A stretch of DNA of 64,000 bases from positions 20,057,806-20,121,805 of the forward strand of contig CM069875.1 of assembly GCA_036172665.1 (NCBI GenBank), given 5' to 3'. A model generated the notes under the pieces. The model made no database searches. It was not told the DNA's origin and saw only the letters and a list, made by a program, of their open reading frames with translations. Shown in pieces: positions 9,438 to 55,885 of the stretch; the stretch's first letter is position 1, and every line of letters starts with the position of its first letter. Origin of the DNA: Prosopocoilus inquinatus (taxonomy: Eukaryota; Arthropoda; Insecta; Coleoptera; Lucanidae). The position numbers and the translations under genes were made by a program.

Positions 9438-10204
9438 TGCAAAAAAATCGCGTACACCTGGTTTTCGTTGTATTAAGTTAGTCTTGAGATTTAATTTGTC
9501 AGTGTCAAACAATTAAAATTCAGACTGACAAAAAACGAGTAAGGCCCGATCTTACCATCTCCTGATAAATTTAACCGTCGGTTAATAACCTAGGAAACCA
9601 TTGTACCAATAATGGTTTCCAAGGATATTAACCGACGGTTAAACTTATCTGGAGTTGGTAAGATCGATCCTAAGTTAGAAGACGAAGAGTGATTCTTAGT
9701 AGTAGCGAATGATTATAGCTTAAATAAAAATACTATGATGCACAAATAATATGTGGGAAGAAGAAATATTTACAAATAGAAAAGATGATTTGAGATAGAT
9801 GTCCAAAAATATCGATTCACGATTCGGATAATGCCCTTCTGAATTAAGAGAAAATCCAATATAAACCGCAAGAGATTCCATGTTTTAACAAATTTTCCAA
9901 TACTCTTGTTACCAACACATAGAAAATTACAAATTAACCTTAGAAGAGTCAAGTGTTAAAAAAATTATATTAATAGAAGACCATAAGCAATTGACAATTT
10001 ATGGGCCGTTAAATATTTAGAATAGCGTAATATTTATTGAACAAATCATACTGTCTGACTCATACCAGGTAAAATAGTAATCATTTCAATCTCAGTTCCT
10101 AACCTGTACGTTTGGAGACTTGACAAAATTCTCAAAATACCCATTTACAAAGCAGAAAACAGGTAAAAACTCGGCTACTTGATTTTGAAGGTGTACGCGA
10201 TTTT
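9438..10204. mobile_element. DNA element with inverted ends nested in the LINE
   Basis: The LINE coding sense breaks at 9438 and resumes at about 10203. Joined across the gap, it reads in frame through LFLIYTC and INDFINFLGT. The insert has matching inverted ends of about 25 bp: TTGCAAAAAAATCGCGTACA on the left, and on the right the reverse complement with one mismatch. TGCA/GCA at the edges may be the target duplication. One short minus-strand frame (9770-9952) shows no transposase motif, so the element looks non-autonomous. It contains the hairpin at 9547-9666, which suggests a second nested insertion. Confidence 0.75.
9547..9666. repeat. Fold-back hairpin MITE, copy 1
   Basis: An imperfect palindrome with arms of about 55 bases. 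CGATCTTACCA and TTTAACCGTCGGTTAATA on the left are answered by TATTAACCGACGGTTAAA and TGGTAAGATCG on the right, around a centre near 9606. The same layout (CCGAT, CTC.TGATAAATTTA, GGAAAC near the centre) recurs at 21551-21680, so this is a family and not a chance palindrome. Confidence 0.8.
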
Positions 10205-12265: not shown

Positions 12266-12269
12266 ATAT
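12266..12269. other. Target-site duplication ATAT of the gypsy element, left copy
   Basis: ATAT directly precedes the TGTGG start and recurs at 16272-16275 directly after the GTAACA end. Four-base duplications are usual for Ty3/gypsy integrases. Confidence 0.8.
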
Positions 12270-12423
12270 TGTGGCGCGCCACCCAGCTCACTACGTCAAA
12301 CTGAAGGCGTCAAGAAGTCGGTTCGTTATGCGTCATTGGCTGCCACGCCACCGGGGCCTATACCGAACAAACTACTTTTCCCGCGATGGAGCAAACGAGA
12401 AGGCAGCGTAGAATATAAAATCG
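12270..12423 (+). repeat. 5' LTR remnant (first 154 bp)
   Basis: Identical to 15941-16094 except for one transition (GGGGCC here, GGGGTC in the 3' copy). It keeps the U3 part up to the TATA-like motif TATAAAA, but the start site, R and U5 are deleted. The remnant is open in the same frame as the following reverse transcriptase region, giving a continuous frame 12255-13247 that crosses the deletion joint. The near identity of the two ends suggests a young insertion or a deletion formed during reverse transcription. Confidence 0.9.
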
Positions 12424-14911
12424 AAGTACCTGTCCGCCTGAAGAACGTCAATTGTTTCTCCGTCAATATCAAGAAAGGAACTATCTTGGAAAGCTGCACC
12501 ATGGTGTCCTCCATCTCCCGCCAACTTGAAACAAACGTGCCAGAAGCGAAAGTCCCAAAGAAATTATGGGAAATGGTTATGTCAACAGCCCAGGAATTGA
12601 CTCCAGACCAGAAGACAAAAGCAACGAATCTGATCGGCCGCTATCAAGATGTATTCGAGGTAGAAAATGGATCCGAGGGAAGAACTGATGTCGTGAAACA
12701 CAAAATAGAGACTGGAGAAGAAAGACCTATCCGTCAAGCTCCAAGGCGATTACCATTGGCGAAGCGTGAGGAAGCGGAACGCATTTTTCGCGAGATGGAA
12801 AAGGATAATGTAATAGAACCATCAAGCAGTCCGTGGGCGTCACCAGTAGTGCTTGTGAAGAAGAAGGATGGGTCCACCAGGTTCTGTGTAGACTACCGGT
12901 TACTCAGCAATGTCACCAAGAAGGACAGCTATCCCCTGCCACGGATTGATGATACCCTGGACACCCTGGCCGGCTCAAAGATCTTCTCAACTTTGGACTT
13001 AAAGAGTGGATATTGGCAAGTGGAGCTGGCGCCTGAAGATCGAGAAAAGACGGCGTTTTCCATTGGTATGGGTCTGTGGCAATTCACAGTGATGCCATTC
13101 GGGTTATGTAAGGCTCCAGCGACATTCGAGAGGTTAGTGGAGACGGTTCTGAAAGGTCTGTCCTGGACAACGTGCATGGTGTATCTTGACGACATAATTG
13201 TCGTGGGAAAAACGTTCGACGACCACACCTGTTCCAGAAGGAAGTAAATTACCTGGGGCACATTGTTAATGGAAATGGAATCACCGTGGACCCTGTGAAG
13301 ATCAGGTGGTGAAAGACTAGCCAACTCCCAGGAATAAACACCAAATAAGGAGTTTCCTTGGCCTGTGCACTTACTATCGGCGCTACGTTCCTGGATTTGC
13401 AGATATTGCTAAGCCGTTGACAAAACTCACTGAAGAATGTCGTCCATTTGAATGGGACCAACAGTGTCAAATTGGTTTTGAACAACTAAAGCAGTACTTG
13501 ATTAGTGCTCCTATTCTGAGTTATCCTCTCCCGGAAGGCAAGTTTGTCGTGGACACAGATGCTAGCAACGTTGGGATTGGTGGTGTACTCTCCCTGATAC
13601 AAGAGGGGCAAGAGAAAGTGATCGGCTACTTCAGTAAAATCCTATCAAAGCCGGAACGAAACTATCACCGTCACAAGAAGGGAATTACTAGCCGTCGTAA
13701 AAACGATAGAACATTTCTACAAGTTCTTGTATGGTAGACGCTTCCTCCTGAGAACCGACCATGCCGCTCTAAAATGGCTTCTCCGTTTCAAGAACCCAGA
13801 AGGGCAAGTTGCACGATGGATCGAACGACTTCAAGAGTACGATTTTGAAATTCAGCATCGGGCAGGAACTAGCCATCGAAATACCGATGCTTTGTCGAGA
13901 AGACCCTGTGCCGAAGACTGTAAGCACTGTAGTCGTTTGGACGAGAAAGTAGCCACGACTGCGAGGACAGCCATTGTTGACGACAAATGGCAAGGCGAAG
14001 AACTGCGAAGAGACCAGGAGAACGACCCGGATTTGAAATTAGTGGTATAATGGAAAAGCAGGGACGCGAGGCCTACCTGGGAAGAGGTAGCACCATGTGC
14101 ACCGTCCGTAAAATCATACTGGGCGCAGTTGGACTCCATAGTGTTGGAACGTGGTCTTCTGAGACGAACCATAGAGAATCAGGAAGGCATGGAACAGAAG
14201 ACGCAGTTACTGATCCCCAAGAATAGGGTGCCAGAAATTCTGAGGGAACTTCACGATTGAACTTCGGGAGGGAATCTGGGAGTTAAGGTGCGCGAAAGAT
14301 TTTACTGGGTGAACTGCAAGGAAGACTTGAAGGATTGGTCCAGAAAGTGTGCAGTCTGCGCAGCCAGTAACGGTCCCCACAGGCGGGGCAAGGCCCCCAT
14401 GAGACAGTACAACGTTGGAAGTCCTTTTGAGAGAGTTGCCATCGATGTAGCCAGCCCGTTTCCAGAAACGAATGGTGGAAACAAGTACATCGTCGTGGTA
14501 ATGGACTACTTTAGCAAGTGGGTTGAAGCTTACGCCCTACCTAACCAAGAGGTAGTCACTATTGCGGAAGTCCTTGTCAGGGAATGGATCAGTCGGTATG
14601 GTGCACCTGCACTTGCATTCAGACCAAGGGAGGAATTTTGAATCGGCCTTGTTCAAGAACGTGTATACTCTGCTCGACGTACGGAAAACTAAAACAACTG
14701 CACTCCACCCACAGTCGGACGGAATGGTGGAAAGGTTCAACAGAACCATCAACCGACATTTGTCCAAGGTCGTTTCCGATCATCAGAGGAACTGGGACAC
14801 GTACATTCCCCTGTTTCTAATGGCATACCGCTCGTCCGTTGATGAGACAACAGGGGAGACTCCGGCGAAAGTGGTATTCGGGCGAGAGCCGAGACTGCCC
14901 TGCGACCTGAA
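12424..14911 (+). pseudogene. pol: Gypsy pol: reverse transcriptase, RNase H, integrase (broken)
   Basis: Reverse transcriptase at 12430-13225 has LPLAKREEAE, VVLVKKKDGSTRFCVDYR, DLKSGYWQVEL, PFGLCKAPATFERLV and the catalytic VYLDDIIVV. RNase H at 13417-14050 has VVDTDASNVGIGGVLS, GYFSKILSKPERNY and LRTDHAALKWLL. The integrase has a zinc-finger remnant (KCAVC near 14350), then AIDVASPF, HSDQGRNFES and HPQSDGMVERFNRT, which hold the DDE residues. Lesions seen: loss of roughly 30 codons plus a frame change near 13228 (between YLDD and LFQKEVNYLGHIV), a frameshift at 13665-13690, in-frame stops at 14048-14050 and 14258-14260, a frameshift near 14605-14625, and a 5-bp duplication near 14910. Gag, protease and the primer-binding site are absent. 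The element cannot move by itself. Confidence 0.92.
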
Positions 14912-16132
14912 GTGAAGTTTGGTGTGAAGCCTGGCGAAGTCTCTATCGACGAAGATTACATGAGCAAAATGGACGACATCCACAACCAAGTGCGTCACAA
15001 TATACAGACGGCCAGCGATCGGATGAAGGAGCACTATGACATCAACTCTCAACAAGGGGGATACCAACCTGGAGCACTGGTCTGGCTTTATAACCCCCAA
15101 AGACGTCGAGGCCTGTCCCCAAAACTGCAGACCTCTTGGGAAGGTCCTTACAAAGTGATGAAACGGATCAACGACGTCGTTTACCGCATCAAGAAGGTCC
15201 CCTATGGCAAACCCAAAGTAATCCACTTCAACCGGATAGCCTCTTACCATGGAGAAGCAGAGGAAGGGACAGTACAAAGGGTGCAAGTTTCCAAAGTGAA
15301 CTTCGAAACCTTCATGTCTCATCACGCTGAAGGAAGTAAGGCACGGTTTGGAGTGACCACGCAGAAGCAACAAGATCTCTTTAAAGTGCCACTGGAGTAC
15401 AGTCTGGCCCACTGCGTAGCAGAAGACCTGAAAATGTCCAAAGGAATCGCTCAGGTGTTTAAGAAGAAATTTGGCCAAATCGAGGAGCTCCGAAGACAGC
15501 ATCCCGTGGTAGGCAAGAGTCTGCAGATCATCTATTCGACGGCAGATCGGAGGCGCCACGTGCATTATTTAGTCACTAAGAAGACATCAAGTGGTAAACC
15601 TGACTATCACAGTATGTGGAGAGCCCTATATAGCCTGAGGGGACAGCTAATAGAGATCCACCAGATGAAGTTAGCCATCCCCAAATTGGACTGCGGATTG
15701 GATGGACTAGACTGGAGAGTAATTCGAAGCATGCTAGAAGTCATCTTCCACAGAACGGGAATTGAAGTCCTAGTCTGCAGCCACCACCCACAGGCAATAG
15801 TCAGCAACAGCAAAACCGTGGGCTACTACTTCTTCCAGACGGGAAATTGCAAGAATGGGCCACCATGTAGATTTCGACACCCTCCTTCAAGACTATCACC
15901 AGGAACATTTCGAGAAAAAACGTTTTTAAGAAGGGGGCAGTGTGGCGCGCCACCCAGCTCACTACGTCAAACTGAAGGCGTCAAGAAGTCGGTTCGTTAT
16001 GCGTCATTGGCTGCCACGCCACCGGGGTCTATACCGAACAAACTACTTTTCCCGCGATGGAGCAAACGAGAAGGCAGCGTAGAATATAAAATCGGCCGGG
16101 GTGGACTCAGGAGTCAGTCGAATTCTAAATAG
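14912..16132 (+). CDS. Integrase tail fused to TARG1/OARD1-type macro domain and CCCH-like finger
   Basis: An unbroken 406-codon frame. The apparent start is only where the frame reopens after a 5-bp duplication. Residues 1-115 are the usual gypsy integrase C-terminus (WEGPYKVMKRINDVVYRIKK, KVIHFNRIASY). Residues about 153-290 read as a macro domain of the TARG1 (OARD1) type: DLFKVP, SLAHCVAEDLKMSKGIA, VFKKKFG, HYLVTKKTSSGKP, IPKLDCGLDGLDW and IEVLVC. The two residues known to be catalytic in human TARG1, the Lys of TKK and the Asp of CGLD, are present as K223 and D264. TARG1 removes ADP-ribose from acidic residues; activity here is inferred. Residues 305-323 (YYFFQTGNCKNGPPCRFRH) resemble a CCCH zinc finger lacking its first Cys. 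The frame then runs through the polypurine tract and most of U3, stopping inside the LTR. The related element at 51871-55885 ends right after its integrase tail. Confidence 0.85.
   Translation: MKFGVKPGEVSIDEDYMSKMDDIHNQVRHNIQTASDRMKEHYDINSQQGGYQPGALVWLYNPQRRRGLSPKLQTSWEGPYKVMKRINDVVYRIKKVPYGKPKVIHFNRIASYHGEAEEGTVQRVQVSKVNFETFMSHHAEGSKARFGVTTQKQQDLFKVPLEYSLAHCVAEDLKMSKGIAQVFKKKFGQIEELRRQHPVVGKSLQIIYSTADRRRHVHYLVTKKTSSGKPDYHSMWRALYSLRGQLIEIHQMKLAIPKLDCGLDGLDWRVIRSMLEVIFHRTGIEVLVCSHHPQAIVSNSKTVGYYFFQTGNCKNGPPCRFRHPPSRLSPGTFREKTFLRRGQCGAPPSSLRQTEGVKKSVRYASLAATPPGSIPNKLLFPRWSKREGSVEYKIGRGGLRSQSNSK
15928..15940 (+). other. Polypurine tract of the gypsy element
   Basis: AAGAAGGGGGCAG sits directly before the 3' LTR (TGTGG). 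This is where plus-strand synthesis is primed in LTR retrotransposons. The second gypsy element in the window has the closely similar AAGAGGGGGGCAG at the same position, which supports the call. Confidence 0.85.
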
Positions 16133-16271
16133 CGATCGTCGAAGTTAGATTTAGTGTATAAATAAATTGTTACAAATAAATTGGATTGTAAGCATTATTA
16201 AATTACGGTTAAGTTTTTACCGAGTGTTTTATTCGTTTAAATAAATTAATTTAAACCCTAGAAACGTAACA
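15941..16271 (+). repeat. 3' LTR of the macro-domain gypsy element (331 bp)
   Basis: Starts TGTGGCGCGCCACC and ends GAAACGTAACA (TG...CA), flanked by the polypurine tract on the left and the ATAT target duplication on the right. The first 154 bases match the 5' remnant. It holds a TATA-like box at 16085, an initiator-like TCAGTC at 16114 and AATAAA signals at about 16161 and 16175. U3 is therefore about 170 bp, and R/U5 make up the rest (inferred). Confidence 0.9.
16085..16147 (+). promoter_or_regulatory. LTR core promoter: TATA box, initiator and DPE-like motif
   Basis: TATAAA at 16085-16090 lies 31 bases upstream of the A of an arthropod-type initiator TCAGTC (16114-16119). Counting that A (16116) as +1, positions +28 to +32 (16143-16147) read AGTTA, which fits the DPE consensus RGWYV. 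Spacing of all three motifs is canonical. In the 5' remnant only the TATA box survives (12414-12420), so that copy should not start transcription normally. Confidence 0.6.
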
Positions 16272-16697
16272 ATATGTACATAATTGTGGTTATCCATTTT
16301 AATTCTTTTTAATTACAAAACGTGAGAAGTTAATTTTCGTAAAATGCGCGACTCACAGACAAGAGATGCACAGCCCACTTAGTTTTTGTTTAATTTGATT
16401 GTTTCATTTTTAAAATTTATAAATTACTTCCTTAAATTCTCGTTCTTTTTCCATTCTTGGGTATATTTGTTTAGATTTTCATATTCATATTAGTAAAAAA
16501 AAAAAAAAAAAAATAGTAGTGCAATTCGGAAAGCAAAAGCTGACTGACTGTCTTCTGTTAAAAACGGAACTCAGAAGAAATGCTAAATCAATTCAAATTG
16601 TGGCTTTTTTAAGTAATTTTGTTTGACGTATCATTTATTAAAATCGGATAAGAAGTAAGGACGCTACATCATTAAAGGCTTTTCATATTCCACCCGG
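16272..16697. other. Intergenic stretch with an A19 tract
   Basis: No gene. A run of 19 A residues lies at 16495-16513, preceded by AT-rich sequence. It could be the tail of an old retroposed sequence, but no body was recognised. Confidence 0.4.
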
Positions 16698-18001
16698 TAC
16701 GTGGGCTGCTGGAAAAGTTTCTGGAAACGGTGTGAAAAAATGCATATGAAATTTGGTAAACGGTATCATTGTTTTTCGAAGTATTCGCTTTTGACGTCAA
16801 TTCACTTTTGCATAAGCTCGATCCAATTTCTAAAACACGTTTTCCACTGTAAAGATGGTACCTCAGAAACCAGTGTCCGGAATGTTTCAACCGCTGCTTA
16901 GGCCGACGAAAATCGCTCACCACGCATTTTATTTTTGATATTTGGGAACAAAAAGAAATCATTAGGGGATAAATCAGGTGAATATGGACAATGAGTCATT
17001 AATTCAACATTTTTGTTGGACAAAAAATCAACTACGAGTATTTGACGGGCTGAGTGAGAGCTGGCGTTGTCATGATGGAGAATAATTCGTCAATTTCGAT
17101 TGTTTCTTCTTATTTGATCGATGACTTCCGGCAAACAAATTGTAGTATACCAATCGGCATTCACGGTTTTTCGATCTTCTGAAGCCACGGCTGCTACGTG
17201 TCCAGCTAAACCAAAGAAACAAGCAATCACTTGCTTCGCAGCACTGCGTGAACGGACAACTTTTGTTGGTTTTAGTTCATTTTGAAATACCCAAACGGTA
17301 GATTGTTGTTTACTTTCTGGCTCGTATGAATAGATCCACGTTTCGTTACCAGTAACGATGTTATAAACTAAATTTGAACGACTTCCATTGAATTTCTTGA
17401 GCATTTCTTCGCACCATTTGACCCGACCCTGCTTTTGCGCTTCTGTTAAATTGTGTGGGATCCACCGACTGCAAAGCTTTCGTACGTTCAAATGATCATG
17501 CAAAATCTGGTGTCTTGGTTTCATGTCAATGCGTAAGGATGCTTGAATCACACGGTATCTCACACGTCGATCTCGCTCAAGCATTTCACGCACAGCATCT
17601 ATATTAGTGGCAACAACAGATGTTGATGGACAACCTTCACGAAATACGTCACTGAGAGAGGTACGTCCACGCTGGAATTCGGCAAGCCAATTATAAACAC
17701 TGCTCTTTGATGATGCTTCATCTCCAAAAGCCAAATGAAGCCGATAGAGGCATTGTTTCGGCGTTAGACCACATTTGATATCGTAAAAACTCATGGCACG
17801 AAAATTTTCACGCGAGATTTCCATGTTTACATAAAATTACTTTTTCTCAAATGCTGTACAAACAAAACTAGTTCACTTGGATAGAAATTGTCAAAAGAAT
17901 TATAGGCGAAAAACGTCAAATTTTTCAAATATGACAGTTGATAAACGCGAACAATTCTAGACCTACTAGATTCCAGAAAATTTTCCAGCAGCTCACGTGT
18001 A
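16698..18001 (-). mobile_element. Full-length but dead mariner element
   Basis: About 1.3 kb, the usual mariner size. The ends are inverted repeats of about 30 bp: left ACGTGGGCTGCTGGAAAAG, right (read inward) ACGTGAGCTGCTGGAAAAT, both continuing TTTCTGGAA. TA dinucleotides lie at both edges (16698-16699 and 18000-18001), although the two TIR starts differ by two bases. The single transposase gene inside is on the minus strand and disabled. Confidence 0.85.
16768..17824 (-). pseudogene. Mariner transposase pseudogene
   Basis: One continuous frame of about 350 codons from the ATG at 17824 to 16768, interrupted by in-frame stops (the first at 17090-17092) and not by frameshifts. Residues 1-70 form the paired helix-turn-helix region (SSVYNWLAEFQRGRTSLSD). 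The mariner WVPH.L motif is present as WIPHNLT at 121-127. The catalytic triad is damaged: VTGNETW has Asn160 where mariners have Asp. HHDNASSH and SPDLSPNDFF keep the other two Asp. By my count 36 residues separate the last two, two more than the usual 34. Nonsense changes alone, without indels, suggest decay by point mutation. Confidence 0.93.
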
Positions 18002-46149: not shown

Positions 46150-47876
46150 TACACGGTGGCCAGAAAAATGCGGACAAACGCCAGGTAGAACGATTCTTTG
46201 TTCAATTCTGAGGCGATAATCTTAATCCAAAAAAGTTATGCGGTCCTTCCTTAAGGCGCACGAGACCATCAAACCTTAAGATGTACGGCTAAAATTTAGC
46301 AAAATTCGTCAAATTTATCTATGTAAAATCATTGTGGTGAAATTTAGAAATGGAATTATCTCAAATGCATTGATGTAACTAATCGATTAATACCAATGGT
46401 TTACATTTTTAACATTTCTTCATTGGCTTTTTTGAAATTAAAGTACATATGGCAACGTGGTACTGTAAGGCTGCTTGTTTAAAAGTAGTAAGTAGTTGTC
46501 AATTTTTGACGTTTCTCATGTGACATTTGGCTCTTGAAATAAGATAAACATTTTGTGCTGTTCTTAGTACCGAACAATGTTTACCTTTGGAGAATACGCC
46601 GACATGTATATGGTATTCGGATTTTGCAATGGAAATGCAAACTTGGCAAAAGAAGAATATCAAATACGGTATCCTCAACGGCGACATCCATCCACCAACA
46701 CGTTCCGTAGAATGGATCAGCGACTTAGAGAAACTGGCTCCTTTATACCGAATTATCGTAACAGCGGTAGACCTAGAGGGCGTCGAACAGTTCAATTAGA
46801 AGAGCAAATATTGGATGCTGTTTACGAAGATCCGACGTCCAGCACAAGACAAATAGCTCGGGAACTAAATATTCCTAGCAAAACAACAGTGCACTCAGTA
46901 CTATCTCAAAATTTGTTGCATCCGTTTCATGCAAGGAAAGTGCAGCCTTTGTATGTGAACGATAATGTGCACAGAAGAATGTTTTGTAACAATATTTTAC
47001 AAAGGATTCAAGAAGAGCCGAACTTTTTATTGCATATTCTCTGGAGCGACGAATGCTTGTTTACGAGAGATGGCGTCTTTAATAGCCATAATTTTCATTT
47101 TTGGGCGGACGAAAATCCCAAGGCAGTAAGGGAAATTGGACATCAGAGAAGATTTTCGGTAAATGTTTGGCTGGGGATTTTAAATCTCCGAGTTGTTGGA
47201 CCAATATTTCTTCCAAATCGTCTAAATGGAATTGAGTACGTTAACGTTTTAGAAGAAGTACTGGATAATATTCCACTGAATTTGAGACCCAACATGTTGT
47301 ACATGCATGACGGAGCTTCTGCTCACAATGCCAGAATTTCTAGGGATTGGTTAAACGAACACTTTCCGAATCGGTGGATAGGGCGTAACGGTCCAATAGC
47401 ATGGCCGGCAAGATCTCCCGATATTAATCCTCTGGACTTTTTCGTTTGGGGGTTTTTAAAGGAAAAGGTCTATGCAACGCCTCCAGTGAACGAAGAGGAT
47501 GTAATTAATAAAATTACGGCGGCAGTTTCACTTCAGCTTCCTCGAAGATTGGAATTATGTCTGGAAACTGATGGCTACCAATTTGAACAGTTCTTATAAT
47601 TTTTTCATATTATCTTTAAATTTGAATACAATTGGTATCCATGTTAACATAAAATTCTTGCTAATTTGCGTATTTACCTGATTTATAGTAAATAATAAAA
47701 TGATTACTACCACAGTACTTGTCTGATTAGGTGTTGCCAAATTTACAATTCTTTTAAGCTGCTCGTGTGACTTAAGAAAGCACTGTACTACTTTTTTCAA
47801 TTAAGATTGTCAACTCAGAATTAAACAAAGATTTGGCCTGCGTGGCGTTTGTCCGCATTTTTCTGGCCACCGTGTA
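46150..47876 (+). mobile_element. Intact Tc1/mariner-superfamily transposon
   Basis: 1727 bp, bounded by perfect 34-bp terminal inverted repeats (TACACGGTGGCCAGAAAAAT and 14 more bases on each side). The similarity continues imperfectly to about 70 bp (CTTTGTT.AATTCTGAG). A TA duplication lies on both sides (46148-46149 and 47877-47878). The single gene inside is open from ATG to stop. Perfect ends plus an intact gene suggest a recent insertion that may still be able to move. Confidence 0.95.
46577..47599 (+). CDS. DD41D transposase, intact (340 aa)
   Basis: DDE transposase of the IS630-Tc1-mariner superfamily. Residues 1-65 form an N-terminal helix-turn-helix of the type seen in insect DUF4817 proteins (EYADMYMVFGFCNGNANLAK, HPSTNTFRRMDQRLRETGSF). 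A second DNA-binding helix-turn-helix lies at about 70-115 (STRQIARELNIPSKTTVHSV). The catalytic core has D158 (WSDECLFTRDG), D245 (YMHDGASAHNAR) and D287 (RSPDINPLDFFVWG). By my count 41 residues separate D245 and D287, hence DD41D. No stop or frameshift is present, and all three catalytic Asp are kept. The 5' UTR from the TIR to the ATG is about 430 bp with no intron needed. The protein would bind the TIRs and cut at TA. The closest named family was not determined. Confidence 0.93.
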   Translation: MFTFGEYADMYMVFGFCNGNANLAKEEYQIRYPQRRHPSTNTFRRMDQRLRETGSFIPNYRNSGRPRGRRTVQLEEQILDAVYEDPTSSTRQIARELNIPSKTTVHSVLSQNLLHPFHARKVQPLYVNDNVHRRMFCNNILQRIQEEPNFLLHILWSDECLFTRDGVFNSHNFHFWADENPKAVREIGHQRRFSVNVWLGILNLRVVGPIFLPNRLNGIEYVNVLEEVLDNIPLNLRPNMLYMHDGASAHNARISRDWLNEHFPNRWIGRNGPIAWPARSPDINPLDFFVWGFLKEKVYATPPVNEEDVINKITAAVSLQLPRRLELCLETDGYQFEQFL

Positions 47877-51870: not shown

Positions 51871-52181
51871 TGTTACGAATCTGGGGATTCACAAATTATA
51901 GTCGTTAAATTTCAGAACTCTTTAATTTCAAGTTGTCGCTTTTCACAATTAACAACACAACAGTAATGAGCTTGTCTATCAAATAACACTTTTACAAAAT
52001 GTACTTTCTATTTATTCGAGGTACGAGCCCTTTGCTAGCTGACTTAATCACTAAACTCCTGGCAGAGCCCTCTTTTGCTCGAACTTATTAGAATGAACAC
52101 GTAGCTTCGGTAACGTTCTGTGACGCAAGGTGGCGTGACTGATGCTAAAAATAGATATGTTTGCGCGTCACGACTGTAACA
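51871..52181 (-). repeat. 3' LTR of the second gypsy element (311 bp)
   Basis: On the minus strand it starts TGTTACAGTCGTGACGCG and ends AGATTCGTAACA (TG...CA), directly after the polypurine tract. It shows no useful identity to the LTR at 15941-16271 apart from the terminal TAACA. Only one copy is in the window. Confidence 0.8.
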
Positions 52182-52195
52182 CTGCCCCCCTCTTA
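52182..52195 (-). other. Polypurine tract of the second gypsy element
   Basis: On the minus strand AAGAGGGGGGCAG precedes the LTR; compare AAGAAGGGGGCAG in the first element. Confidence 0.8.
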
Positions 52196-55100
52196 ATTCT
52201 GTTCGTCCCGAACAGAGTACGGAGCCAAACGGTCGATGTGGACAACTTTCATCTTCCCACGGGGTAGCTTTTGTATTCTGTAGACCACATCATTGATCTT
52301 CTTAATTATTTGACAGGGTCCATCCCAATGCGCCTGAGTTTGGGGCACAGACCACAAGTGCTTCTGGGGTTGTATAGCCACATCTGGATCACTTAGTCCC
52401 AGTCGAGTTTCTGGTCGCCTGAATTTTAAGTCACAAGGCAGACGCAAGGGGTTCGTTTAGTAGTGTCATGCTCTGCAGAACGGTACGCCATCAGGAAAAG
52501 GGGAAGATGTTCGTCCCAGTCCCGTTGGTTCTTCGAAACAACTTTAGCCAGATGTCTCTCCAAAGTCCTACTGAAACGCTCCACCATTCCATCTAACTGT
52601 GGGTGCAAGGGAGTTGTTCGCGTTTTGAAAATGCCTAGTAACCTGGTGAATTCCCGGAAAATGTCCTTCAAAGTTCCTGCCTTGGTCGGAATGGATCTCC
52701 ATGGGTACTCTAAATCTTGTTTTCCAATTCTCTATCAAGGCATTCACAACGGTTATTGACTCTTGGTTTGGTAAAGCATAACCTTCTGGCCATTTGGTGA
52801 AATAAATTGGTCACTACCATATTATATTTGTTTCCCTGGTTGGTTTCTGGAAATGGGCCGGATATGTCTATGGCAATCCTCTCGAATGGTGCTTCAAGTT
52901 GTAACTCTCAATCAGTTTTACATTTCGCCCAGTAGAACTTTTCTTGTTCTTTCGACAATGTCTTGTTGATGCCCAAATGTCCACCGGACGTACTGTCATA
53001 AATCTCCTCCAGGACCTCAGCGACCCTTACCCGTGGAAGCACGAGTTGGTCCTTCATCTCACTCCCATTAGGTGTTTCCCATTTTCTCATTAGTAACCCA
53101 CTCTTCAACTCCAGAGAATCCCATTTAGTCCAATAGGTTTTAAACACTGGATTCTTCCCCGATATCTCTGCCCAAGTGGCACGTTGCTGTCTTTCCTTCC
53201 ATTCGATTATGGTTCTTATTTCAGGATCTTCTCGATGTTCTCTCTTAATGGTCTCGGTTTGCCAACTGTCTACTACGACGCCAGTTCTTCTGATGGGAAT
53301 TATCCCTTCTTTGTTTTCTGCTTTTGAGCAGTGCCGACAATCCTCAGGATAAGGTCTTCTGGAGAGTGTGTCCGCATTATTATGAACACGGCCTGGACGA
53401 TGTTCGATTGTAAAATCATACTCCTGTAATCTTTCTATCCATCTGGCAAGCTGGCCTTCTATATTCTTAAACTGAAGCAACCATTTCAAGGCTGCATGGT
53501 CTGTTCGAAGATGAAAGTGTCGGCCATAAAGATACTTGTAAAAATGTTCTATTATCTTCACCATGGCAAGATGCTCCTTTCTGGTTACACAGTAGTTGCT
53601 TTCAGCTTTCGACAAAACTTTACTGAAGTACTCAATAGCACGTTCTTGCCCGTCTTTCACTTGTGACAGTACGCTTCCAATCCCGTAGTTGCTTGCATCA
53701 CTATCAATAATAAACTTGCCCTATGACCTTGGATAAGACAATACAGGAGCAGTCATTAAAAGATCCTTCAGATTGTCAAAGGCTTCTTGGCAGTCCACAC
53801 TCCAGAAAAATGTGGTTTTTTCTTCGGTCAGTGCATGTAGAGGTTTCGCTACCTTTGCAAAGTCCTTAACGAATCGTCTGTAATAGGTGCAAAGCCCCAA
53901 GAAACTTCTTAATTCGTGCACATTCTTCGGCGGTGGCCAATTCTTAACAACTGAAATCTTATCCGGGTCAGTCGCAACTCCTGCCTCAGAGATGACATGT
54001 CCAAGGTATTTCACTTACTTCTGGAAAAACTTGCATTTGAATGTATTTAATTTTAGCTCCGCCTCTTCAATCCTTTGGAAAACATTCCTCAGATTTGCAA
54101 GGTGTTCTTTGAAGATTCTTCCAACCACAATCACATTATCTAAGTCTACGAGGCAAGCCTTCTAGCTAAGTCCACGCAATACCAGTTCTATAAGTCGCTC
54201 AAATCTGGCTGGAGCGTTGCATACACCAAAAGGCATCACCTTGAACTGCCATAGACCAGTACCTGCAGTGAAGGCTGTTTTTCCCTTTTCTTCGGGATGC
54301 ATTCCAACTTACCAATACCCATTTTTCAAGTCCAGAGTAAAGAACCGGACAAGGTGTTAATTGTGTCATCGATCCGAGGTAAGGGATAGCTGTCCTTTTT
54401 CGCGATATCATTTAATCGCCTCTAGTCCACACAGAAACGCGTGTTGCCATCCTTTTTTGTTACAAGTGCAACAGGAGATGCCCATGGACTTTACAATGGT
54501 TCAATAATTCCTTGGCCCTGCATCTTCTTGATTAACTGGTCAGCCTCTTCTCTCCTCGCCAATGGCAGTCTTCGTGCGGGTTGACGAATTGAATTCGAAT
54601 CGCTAGTGTTTATTCTGTGCTGAACAATGTCCGTCCGGGTTAAGTCTTCATTGGTTAAGGCGAATATTCTTTTGAATTTTCGAAACAGTCCTCCTATGTT
54701 TTCTGTTTTCATGGGCGTTAACGATGTTGATACCTCTTCCAGCAATTTTTCTAATAGTGGTGGTAGAGTGTCAGACTGATGCCGAGCGGATGCATCGCTT
54801 ACTCCAATGTGGTTTACAGAAGCAATTGCTTCACATTTGCCCACCACTGTTTCGATGGGTATGGTCACTAGATAACTGTTGATATTTGCAAAACGAATAG
54901 GAATTGTTTCTTGCCATCCATCTTCGCCAGAATTAACTTATCGGTTAAGGGTGGAATGTTTACACTTTCGTCCAATATTACTTTTAGCACTGTAGTTAAA
55001 TTTTTCCAGGAACGTGGAGAGGTATTTCTTCAGATCCAATTCGTAGAACTTTATCTTTTAAATCTGCAACCAAGACGTTTTTCTTCATTAAGTGCACTTC

Positions 55101-55885
55101 CAGGATGAAGTCGTCAACAATGTTCTGCCACTAACACCCTGTGCCTGAATTTCATACTTCCAATCTTCATGTCAGTTTCGGCTTCACAAACTGGAACAAC
55201 CTCGCCAGTAACTGTTTGGATATACCTTTCCATTATTCACTAGCTTCCATTTTAGTATAAGATCTGTTCGTATGATGGACACATTCGCTCCGGTATCATT
55301 TGTGAATTGGAAAGATCTCTCACCAATTTTTCCATCTGCTATCAAGCAGATCATTGTTCCTTATCCTGGAAATGGAGACAATCCTGGGGCTCTTGGTAGA
55401 GTCAGCCACAATTCGGCCCTTGTTTCTGACTGGGTTTCATTCAAAATCATCGTCTTGACGAGCGCATTTGCGCCTACAGTTGGAACTTACATGACCTTGT
55501 TTACCATAGTTCCAACAAGTTATAATCCGCCTGCGACCGGCCACTTTCTCATCCAGCTGCTTTAGTCTTTCAAGAACTTCTGTCAGTGCACTATCATCAC
55601 CAACTTTTGGAATGGTATGGAGTTGCTTCATGTGTGCATCACCAAAACGCATTTCCAAGTTTTCCACTAGTTGATTAAAGTTGTTCTGTACTTCCTCGGG
55701 AATGAACTGTAATGCACTCAATGCTGGCCCTCGCAGAGCCAAAACGAGTGCTGCAGCTCTGTCGGAGTCATTCCAGTCATTCACGTCAGCAGCAATTTTA
55801 AACTGTCGGATAGTAGACCAAGGTAAGTCGCCTTTAAATTTAGGTGGTTCAGTTTCTGGTTTGACGACGCAGACGATGAAGTTGT
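52193..55885 (-). pseudogene. gag-pol: Gypsy gag-pol (broken)
   Basis: From 55885 downward: a gag end with PPKFKGDLPWST, ALVLALRGPALSALQF and a degenerate zinc knuckle (CWNYGKQGHVSSNC, with Tyr for the second Cys). The protease has TNDTGANVSIIRTDLI near 55260-55315. Reverse transcriptase has RLPLARREEADQL, a stop before SPWASPVALVTKKDG, and [18 protein letters not shown] (54014). RNase H has IDSDASNYGIG near 53690, YFSKVLSKAESNY and LRTDHAALKWLL. Integrase has AIDISGPFPETNQGNKYN near 52860, HPQLDGMVERFSRT and the C-terminal KKINDVVYRIQKL. Stops and frameshifts lie between most blocks (for example at 53721 and 54014), so it is inactive. Confidence 0.9.

What the first reader, a model, noticed from the sequence alone, without database searches (positions are those of the whole stretch)
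14912..16132. Ty3/gypsy retrotransposon carrying a TARG1-type macro domain downstream of integrase
Directly seen: an open frame continuing from a gypsy integrase C-terminus into about 140 residues with the macro-domain layout of TARG1/OARD1 (DLF, SLAHC..EDL.M..GIA, FKKKFG, YLVTKK, P.LDCGLDGLDW). The Lys and Asp known to be catalytic in human TARG1 are kept (K223, D264). It lies inside the element: polypurine tract and LTR follow directly, and ATAT duplications frame the whole insertion. Inference: the element captured an ADP-ribose hydrolase, possibly to counter host PARP-mediated ADP-ribosylation, much as some viruses carry macro domains. I do not know of a described gypsy lineage with this architecture, but I cannot search.
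Basis: partly seen in the sequence, partly recalled or inferred. Interest (0 to 1): 0.93.

Follow-up and report, generated by a model that had tools for sequence, protein, structure and literature searches.

The report
Retrotransposon polyproteins carrying TARG1-type macrodomains
In this insect genome, probably a beetle's, jumping genes of the Ty3/gypsy type have built a cellular enzyme domain that removes ADP-ribose tags into their own replication polyprotein, in several lineages and at several different places, which suggests that ADP-ribose tagging is something these elements need to undo.

The parts
12266..12269 (.). left copy of the 4-bp target-site duplication, ATAT
   Evidence: read; pairs with 16272-16275
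12270..12423 (+). truncated 5' LTR (154 bp kept)
   Evidence: 99% identical to 15941-16094
12424..14911 (+). remains of pol (RT, RNase H, integrase core), broken in several frames; gag and protease absent
   Evidence: RVT_1 E 5.4e-24, rve and H2C2; RT stretch 12609-13226; frame changes
14912..15349 (+). integrase C-terminus
   Evidence: PF22938 Integrase_p58_C, 40.9 bits, residues 78-109
15350..15784 (+). TARG1/OARD1-type macrodomain (K223 and D264 of the ORF = human K84 and D125)
15824..15880 (+). CCCH-type zinc finger, first Cys replaced by Tyr in this copy
   Evidence: intact at 16 of 16 other genome places read and over the Pfam cut-off in sister copy L043 (26.0 bits, cut-off 20.5)
15928..15940 (+). 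polypurine tract AAGAAGGGGGCAG
   Evidence: sequence; 9 of 10 sampled copies show the same tract before the 3' LTR
15941..16271 (+). 3' LTR, TGTGGCG...CGTAACA; the ORF runs into it as far as 16132
16272..16275 (.). right copy of the target-site duplication, ATAT
51871..55297 (-). comparison: related Ty3/gypsy element without the cassette (integrase C-terminus, stop, purine tract, LTR); its 5' end was not resolved
   Evidence: no macro match in six frames of the window apart from 15356-15784

Best explanation
Shown by computation: Ty3/gypsy elements of this genome encode, in frame within Pol, a macrodomain of the TARG1 branch, mostly kept with its catalytic lysine and aspartate, under purifying selection, and placed at junctions between Pol domains. 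Inferred: the domain is made as part of the polyprotein, packaged with RT and integrase, and works as an ADP-ribose hydrolase inside the particle or integration complex. It would remove ADP-ribose that host PARP enzymes put on acidic residues of element proteins, or on phosphate ends of the element's RNA or cDNA, ends that must be clean for reverse transcription and integration. The CCCH finger of the window's lineage would add a nucleic-acid grip. The nearest functional parallel is retroviral dUTPase, also a housekeeping enzyme carried at different places in Gag-Pol (recalled, not tested).
For: TARG1 identity: E 8.8e-28 (window) and, for one member each of classes B, C, D, E and F, 6.6e-39, 2.2e-42, 2.6e-31, 1.9e-35, 1.7e-29; fold, (window domain only). 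Catalytic pair: both residues in 24 of 27 element domains, among them each of the 12 read from other classes of this genome. Selection: dN/dS 0.13 (B1-B2) and 0.18, 0.19, 0.24 (three B3 pairs), 0.16-0.27 between the window copy and 6 other distinct class A sequences; in B1-B2 the domain is an island of conservation between poorly conserved linkers. Intact setting: 68 of 150 scored copies in frames of 1400 aa or more; 8 of 10 sampled copies have identical LTR pairs. Different places in Pol. The genome has PARP-type matches at 4 places. TARG1 cleaves ADP-ribose from acidic residues and from phosphate ends of nucleic acids (PMC7050489, passages).
Against: No activity was measured. No substrate and no host ADP-ribosylation of any element was looked for or found here. 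Three of 27 element domains lack part of the pair (Diabrotica R/E; Leptinotarsa, a deletion at D125; Holotrichia D to N), though these are single database sequences and may be decayed copies. The PARP set of this genome looks small (5 matches at 4 places, one of them with stops inside), so an antiviral PARP arms race like that of vertebrates is not evident. A reading or tethering role would also keep the binding pocket. Some dN/dS values rest on saturated dS (D and H pairs; B1-B3c not computable), the close pair B1-B1b gave 0.42, and between near-identical class A copies, with few changes, pairs gave up to 1.66.
Confidence: 0.6

Rival explanations
1. The domain is a reader, not an eraser: it tethers integrase to ADP-ribosylated chromatin or DNA breaks and so steers integration, as chromodomains at integrase C-termini do in chromoviruses (recalled).
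For: In two classes, the window's (A) and C, it sits after the integrase C-terminal domain. The nine readable duplications are AT-rich, which says little.
Against: In other classes it lies between protease and RT or between RNase H and integrase, and the catalytic pair, which reading does not need, is kept in 24 of 27.
Confidence: 0.2
2. The enzyme acts on host silencing: it removes mono-ADP-ribose from chromatin factors that silence retroelements, like the SIRT6-KAP1 step described for mammalian L1.
For: ADP-ribosylation-dependent L1 silencing is in print (passages of PMC4695847). The domain keeps the eraser residues.
Against: A domain locked into Pol acts late, after expression; no such silencing step was tested here.
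Confidence: 0.12
3. Passive passenger: a captured piece of host OARD1 that spreads by hitchhiking and has no function.
For: The window copy itself is broken and has lost one zinc-finger cysteine; 3 of 27 element domains lack part of the catalytic pair.
Against: dN/dS well below 1 between subfamilies, catalytic pair kept in 24 of 27, several classes and positions, and beetles of five families.
Confidence: 0.04
4. A host OARD1 gene or pseudogene next to an unrelated element, joined by chance or by misassembly at this locus.
For: None found.
Against: 150 scored in-frame copies, LTRs on both sides of 10 of 10 sampled copies, independent records from other beetles.
Confidence: 0.01

Closest known systems
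TARG1/OARD1 (C6orf130), ALC1-like class of macrodomain hydrolases
   Different: Here a domain inside a retrotransposon Pol polyprotein, in the window's lineage followed by a CCCH finger; activity untested.
Fish epsilon-like endogenous retroviruses with macro domain reading frames (Basta et al. 2009, known to me only from one sentence of PMC4977317)
   Same: Retroelements that carry a macro domain.
   Different: Vertebrate retroviruses, not Ty3/gypsy; described there as additional reading frames. I could not see the sequences, so whether they are TARG1-type is unknown.
Retroviral dUTPase (recalled)
   Same: A cellular housekeeping enzyme carried in Gag-Pol, at different places in different lineages.
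   Different: Different enzyme and substrate.
Chromovirus integrase chromodomain (recalled)
   Same: Extra domain at the integrase C-terminus, as in classes A and C.
   Different: Reader of histone marks without enzyme residues; classes B, D, E, F and H have the domain elsewhere.
DarG antitoxin macrodomain
   Different: Bacterial toxin-antitoxin partner; 20-22% identity over the aligned part.

Membership tests
TARG1/OARD1-type macrodomain | significant sequence similarity to TARG1 over the whole domain | tested here: met
   E 8.8e-28, query residues 6-142 of 145; one member each of five other classes 1.7e-29 to 2.2e-42
TARG1/OARD1-type macrodomain | TARG1 fold | tested here: met
TARG1/OARD1-type macrodomain | catalytic pair K84 and D125 | tested here: met
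   K223 and D264 in the window; both in 24 of 27 element domains
TARG1/OARD1-type macrodomain | removes ADP-ribose from proteins or nucleic-acid ends | not testable with these tools
   needs a bench assay
Pfam PF01661 Macro | score over the curated cut-off (22 bits) | tested here: not met
   window domain 14.1 bits. In one search: over it in three B pieces (35.5, 24.8, 28.5) and C (33.7); under it in E (18.9) and D3 (16.3); not listed in F, D1, D2 and the class A piece. The profile is weak for this branch, so membership of the fold rests on the TARG1 rows.
Ty3/gypsy LTR retrotransposon | order protease-RT-RNase H-integrase | tested here: met
   shown in overlapping parts, no piece holds all four: protease before RT in B and D, RT-RNase H-integrase in E and F, integrase in A and C; the window copy itself lacks gag and protease
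Ty3/gypsy LTR retrotransposon | LTRs TG..CA, purine tract, 4-bp target duplication | tested here: met
   window; 9 of 10 sampled class A copies with a 4-bp duplication, the tenth not resolved; other classes not examined
env-bearing gypsy (errantivirus type) | env frame between integrase and 3' LTR | tested here: not met
   class A: the integrase-macro-CCCH frame runs through the purine tract into the LTR, leaving no room; other classes not examined
CCCH zinc finger | C-x7-C-x5-C-x3-H | tested here: met
   30 of 41 proteins P0002-P0042 and 16 of 16 other genome places read; not met in the window copy itself (first C is Y)
fish retrovirus macro domain | shared ancestry of the macro domain | not tested
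   source paper not held

The most novel reading that the evidence does not exclude
Several Ty3/gypsy lineages each took up a TARG1-type ADP-ribose hydrolase, at different places in Pol, because insects use ADP-ribosylation of retroelement proteins or of cDNA and RNA ends as a defence that was not known; the hydrolase is a general counter-defence, the dUTPase of beetle retrotransposons.
Probability: 0.33. Interest if true: 0.93.

Novelty: new variant of a known kind. Interest (0 to 1): 0.82.

Why it matters
Carriage of one enzyme by several distinct element lineages points at a pressure that they share. If the domain is active, it makes a direct question testable: are retroelement proteins or nucleic-acid ends ADP-ribosylated in insects, and does that restrict them? 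It would also put TARG1, whose cellular role is not settled as far as I know, next to reverse transcription and integration.

Tried and rejected
Chance similarity: rejected by E-values and by the many copies. Host OARD1 at this locus only: rejected. Passenger without function: disfavoured by dN/dS. One capture against several: not settled. The AU test did not reject all 27 element domains as one clade (p 0.083); A+C 0.044, B+E+F 0.034, B1B2+B3 0.0905; the groups were named after seeing trees, so these p values are soft. The macro tree is poorly resolved outside class A (13 of 38 inner branches starred, bootstrap not settled).

I did not find an ordinary one-domain host OARD1 gene, whose lists are capped and full of elements; the only candidate, L051, looks like a gene with two macrodomains and a short intron-like gap and was not followed further. 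No relatives were confirmed in viral contigs or prokaryote genomes. The protein search for longer polyproteins listed 120 of 205 hits, by my reading all from Aromia moschata, so it says little about other insects. The macro-only search had 12 candidates and 4 hits. The spread of classes B-H outside this genome was not tested, nor were the elements assigned to named gypsy clades.

Literature: ten searches listed no paper that I recognised as being on macro domains in Ty3/gypsy elements; the library lacks most subscription journals, and repeat databases were not searchable. Seen of papers: passages of PMC4977317, PMC5434184, PMC7016691, PMC7050489, PMC4695847; listings and abstract starts only for the others. 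PMC7050489 writes Glu125 where the human sequence has Asp125.

Full report

State of this copy. It is a deletion derivative: 154 bp of 5' LTR join pol directly (12270-12423), gag and protease are gone, and pol is broken in several frames. ATAT flanks the whole. One cysteine of the finger is a tyrosine. So nothing suggests that the host uses this copy as a gene.

The family in this genome. The window lies in a genome of 649.6 Mb held here without a name; that it is a beetle's is my inference from the nearest relatives. The macrodomain query scored 150 matches of 1377 first-look candidates, a lower bound that favours intact copies. All 150 are listed without a stop inside, the 149 others at 94-96% identity; 68 of 150 lie in open frames of at least 1400 aa and 23 in frames of at least 1800. 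I read the two ends of ten copies, chosen on the plus strand with long frames, so biased to young ones. Over 316-328 compared bases the LTRs are identical in 8 of 10 pairs, with 1 and 5 mismatches in the other two (the compared stretch was extended outward only while identical). Nine of ten show a 4-bp duplication (in L029 after allowing for a two-base overrun of my script); in the tenth, L021/L022, the outer LTR end was not resolved. At 16 of 16 other places read (19 reads, three places read twice, 7 distinct sequences) the TARG1 motifs with the catalytic Lys and Asp and the CCCH finger are kept.

Other beetles. A protein search gave 50 relatives of 205 candidates. Integrase C-terminus, macrodomain and CCCH finger stand together in records of eight named species: Molorchus minor, Aromia moschata, Exocentrus adspersus (Cerambycidae), Diabrotica virgifera, Callosobruchus maculatus, Gonioctena quinquepunctata, Leptinotarsa decemlineata (Chrysomelidae) and Harmonia axyridis (Coccinellidae). 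Pyrocoelia pectoralis (Lampyridae) has the integrase end and macrodomain without an intact finger, and Holotrichia oblita (Scarabaeidae) the macrodomain with a window-type lead-in. The last nine hits (P0043-P0051), two of them from the beetle Rhamnusium, are TARG1-like proteins without recognised integrase parts. A search for longer proteins listed 120 of 205 hits, by my reading all from Aromia; some join SAP, gag, protease, integrase, macro and CCCH parts in one gene model. Those models lack RT in the Pfam scan, presumably spliced out by the annotation.

Other lineages in the same genome. A search with a TARG1-like protein of unknown source (P0045) brought up macrodomains that are not of the window's type. 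Reading their surroundings gave: class B and classes D and H, protease - macro - RT; class C, integrase - macro - acidic repeats; classes E and F, RT - RNase H - macro - integrase. Pfam places the domains in that order (H by context and RT profile only). Macro itself is over its cut-off in B (35.5, 24.8, 28.5 bits) and C (33.7), under it in E (18.9) and D3 (16.3), and not listed in F, D1, D2 or the class A piece; there the assignment rests on the TARG1 profile. Against solved structures, one member each of B, C, D, E and F finds TARG1 at 6.6e-39, 2.2e-42, 2.6e-31, 1.9e-35 and 1.7e-29. An RT tree of 13 rows (class C by half an RT) separates {B,E,F} from the rest (98/97) and {D,H} (100/100), and joins A with C (92/91); E and F are long rows of unsure place. 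RT identities are 36-63% between classes, 77-94% among B1, B2 and B3, and 71-84% among D1, D2, D3 and H. The related element at 51871-55297 (-) has no macrodomain and ends its integrase right at the purine tract; it is about as near to class A as class C is (RT 52-60% against 63%; integrase pieces 44-67% against 46%). So the domain has come and gone, or come more than once, among close relatives.

How many captures? Class A macrodomains form one clade of 15 rows (99/99). Beyond that the tree is weak, and a single origin of all 27 element domains is not rejected (p 0.083). Three different kinds of place in Pol need several insertions or transfers in any case, but whether each came anew from a host gene or moved between elements is open.

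Selection. NG86 dN/dS of the macrodomain is 0.13 (B1-B2, dS 1.35) and 0.18, 0.19, 0.24 (three B3 pairs, dS 0.37-1.01), 0.16-0.27 between the window copy and six other distinct class A sequences, and 0.42 for the close pair B1-B1b. The values 0.11 (D3-H) and 0.15 (D1-D2) rest on dS of about 2 or more and are unreliable; B1-B3c and D1-H could not be computed. RT of B1-B2 gives 0.08. Between near-identical class A copies the counts are too small (pairs with L043 gave 0.53 to 1.66 where computable). Along B1-B2 the domain stands at 67-73% identity between linkers of 35-45%; D3-H shows the same less sharply. In the six pairs where both were compared, the macrodomain is less identical than RT.

How it would work. 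Catalysis is inferred from the kept pair: 26 of 27 element domains have the lysine, 24 of 27 both; over all 159 domain matches with a residue there, 158 have the lysine and 155 the aspartate (which includes TARG1-like proteins and many Aromia copies). TARG1 removes ADP-ribose from acidic residues and from phosphate ends of nucleic acids, and the review raises RNA ADP-ribosylation as a possible mark of transposon or viral RNA (PMC7050489, passages). The genome has PARP-type matches at four places (5 matches), so writers exist. Being part of Pol, the enzyme would sit with RT and integrase, where cDNA ends and integration intermediates could draw PARP. Every step after 'catalytic residues kept' is inference.

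What is known. Ten literature searches listed no paper that I recognised as being on macro domains in Ty3/gypsy elements; one review sentence credits macro domain frames to fish epsilon-like retroviruses, and endogenous nimaviruses of shrimp carry macro proteins (passages). I therefore file this as a new variant of a known kind, a retroelement with a captured cellular enzyme; the enzyme, the host elements and the several positions in Pol are what is new to me.

Noticed in passing
G000 loci L031-L042, L044-L048, L050, L052-L053, L055-L060, L071-L073: Classes B-H: other Ty3/gypsy lineages of the same genome with TARG1-type macrodomains between protease and RT, between RNase H and integrase, or after integrase.
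   Followed up: partly
L051 (G000:C5:3750900-3754800), macro stretches 757-1077 and 1861-2334: Two macrodomains in tandem with a short intron-like gap and no RT match in the 3.9 kb read: probable host OARD1-like gene with a doubled domain.
   Followed up: partly
P0049: A 616-aa protein of unknown source joins DNA-ligase and BRCT-type Pfam domains (names recalled from the accessions) with a TARG1-type macrodomain, which hints at work on DNA ends.
   Followed up: no
L034 against L033: Class B subfamilies are 95% identical in RT (dS 0.32) but 70% in the macrodomain (dS 1.35): the macro part has another history or evolves faster.
   Followed up: partly
P0062, P0102, P0138: The Aromia relatives start with a SAP domain ahead of gag, unusual for a gypsy element as far as I know.
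   Followed up: no
window 17090-17824 (-) and 46577-47599 (+): Open frames of 244 and 340 aa that look like mariner-type transposases (by eye, not searched).
   Followed up: no
window 9542-9671: Inverted repeat with 61-nt arms, 89% complementary, 8 nt apart.
   Followed up: no
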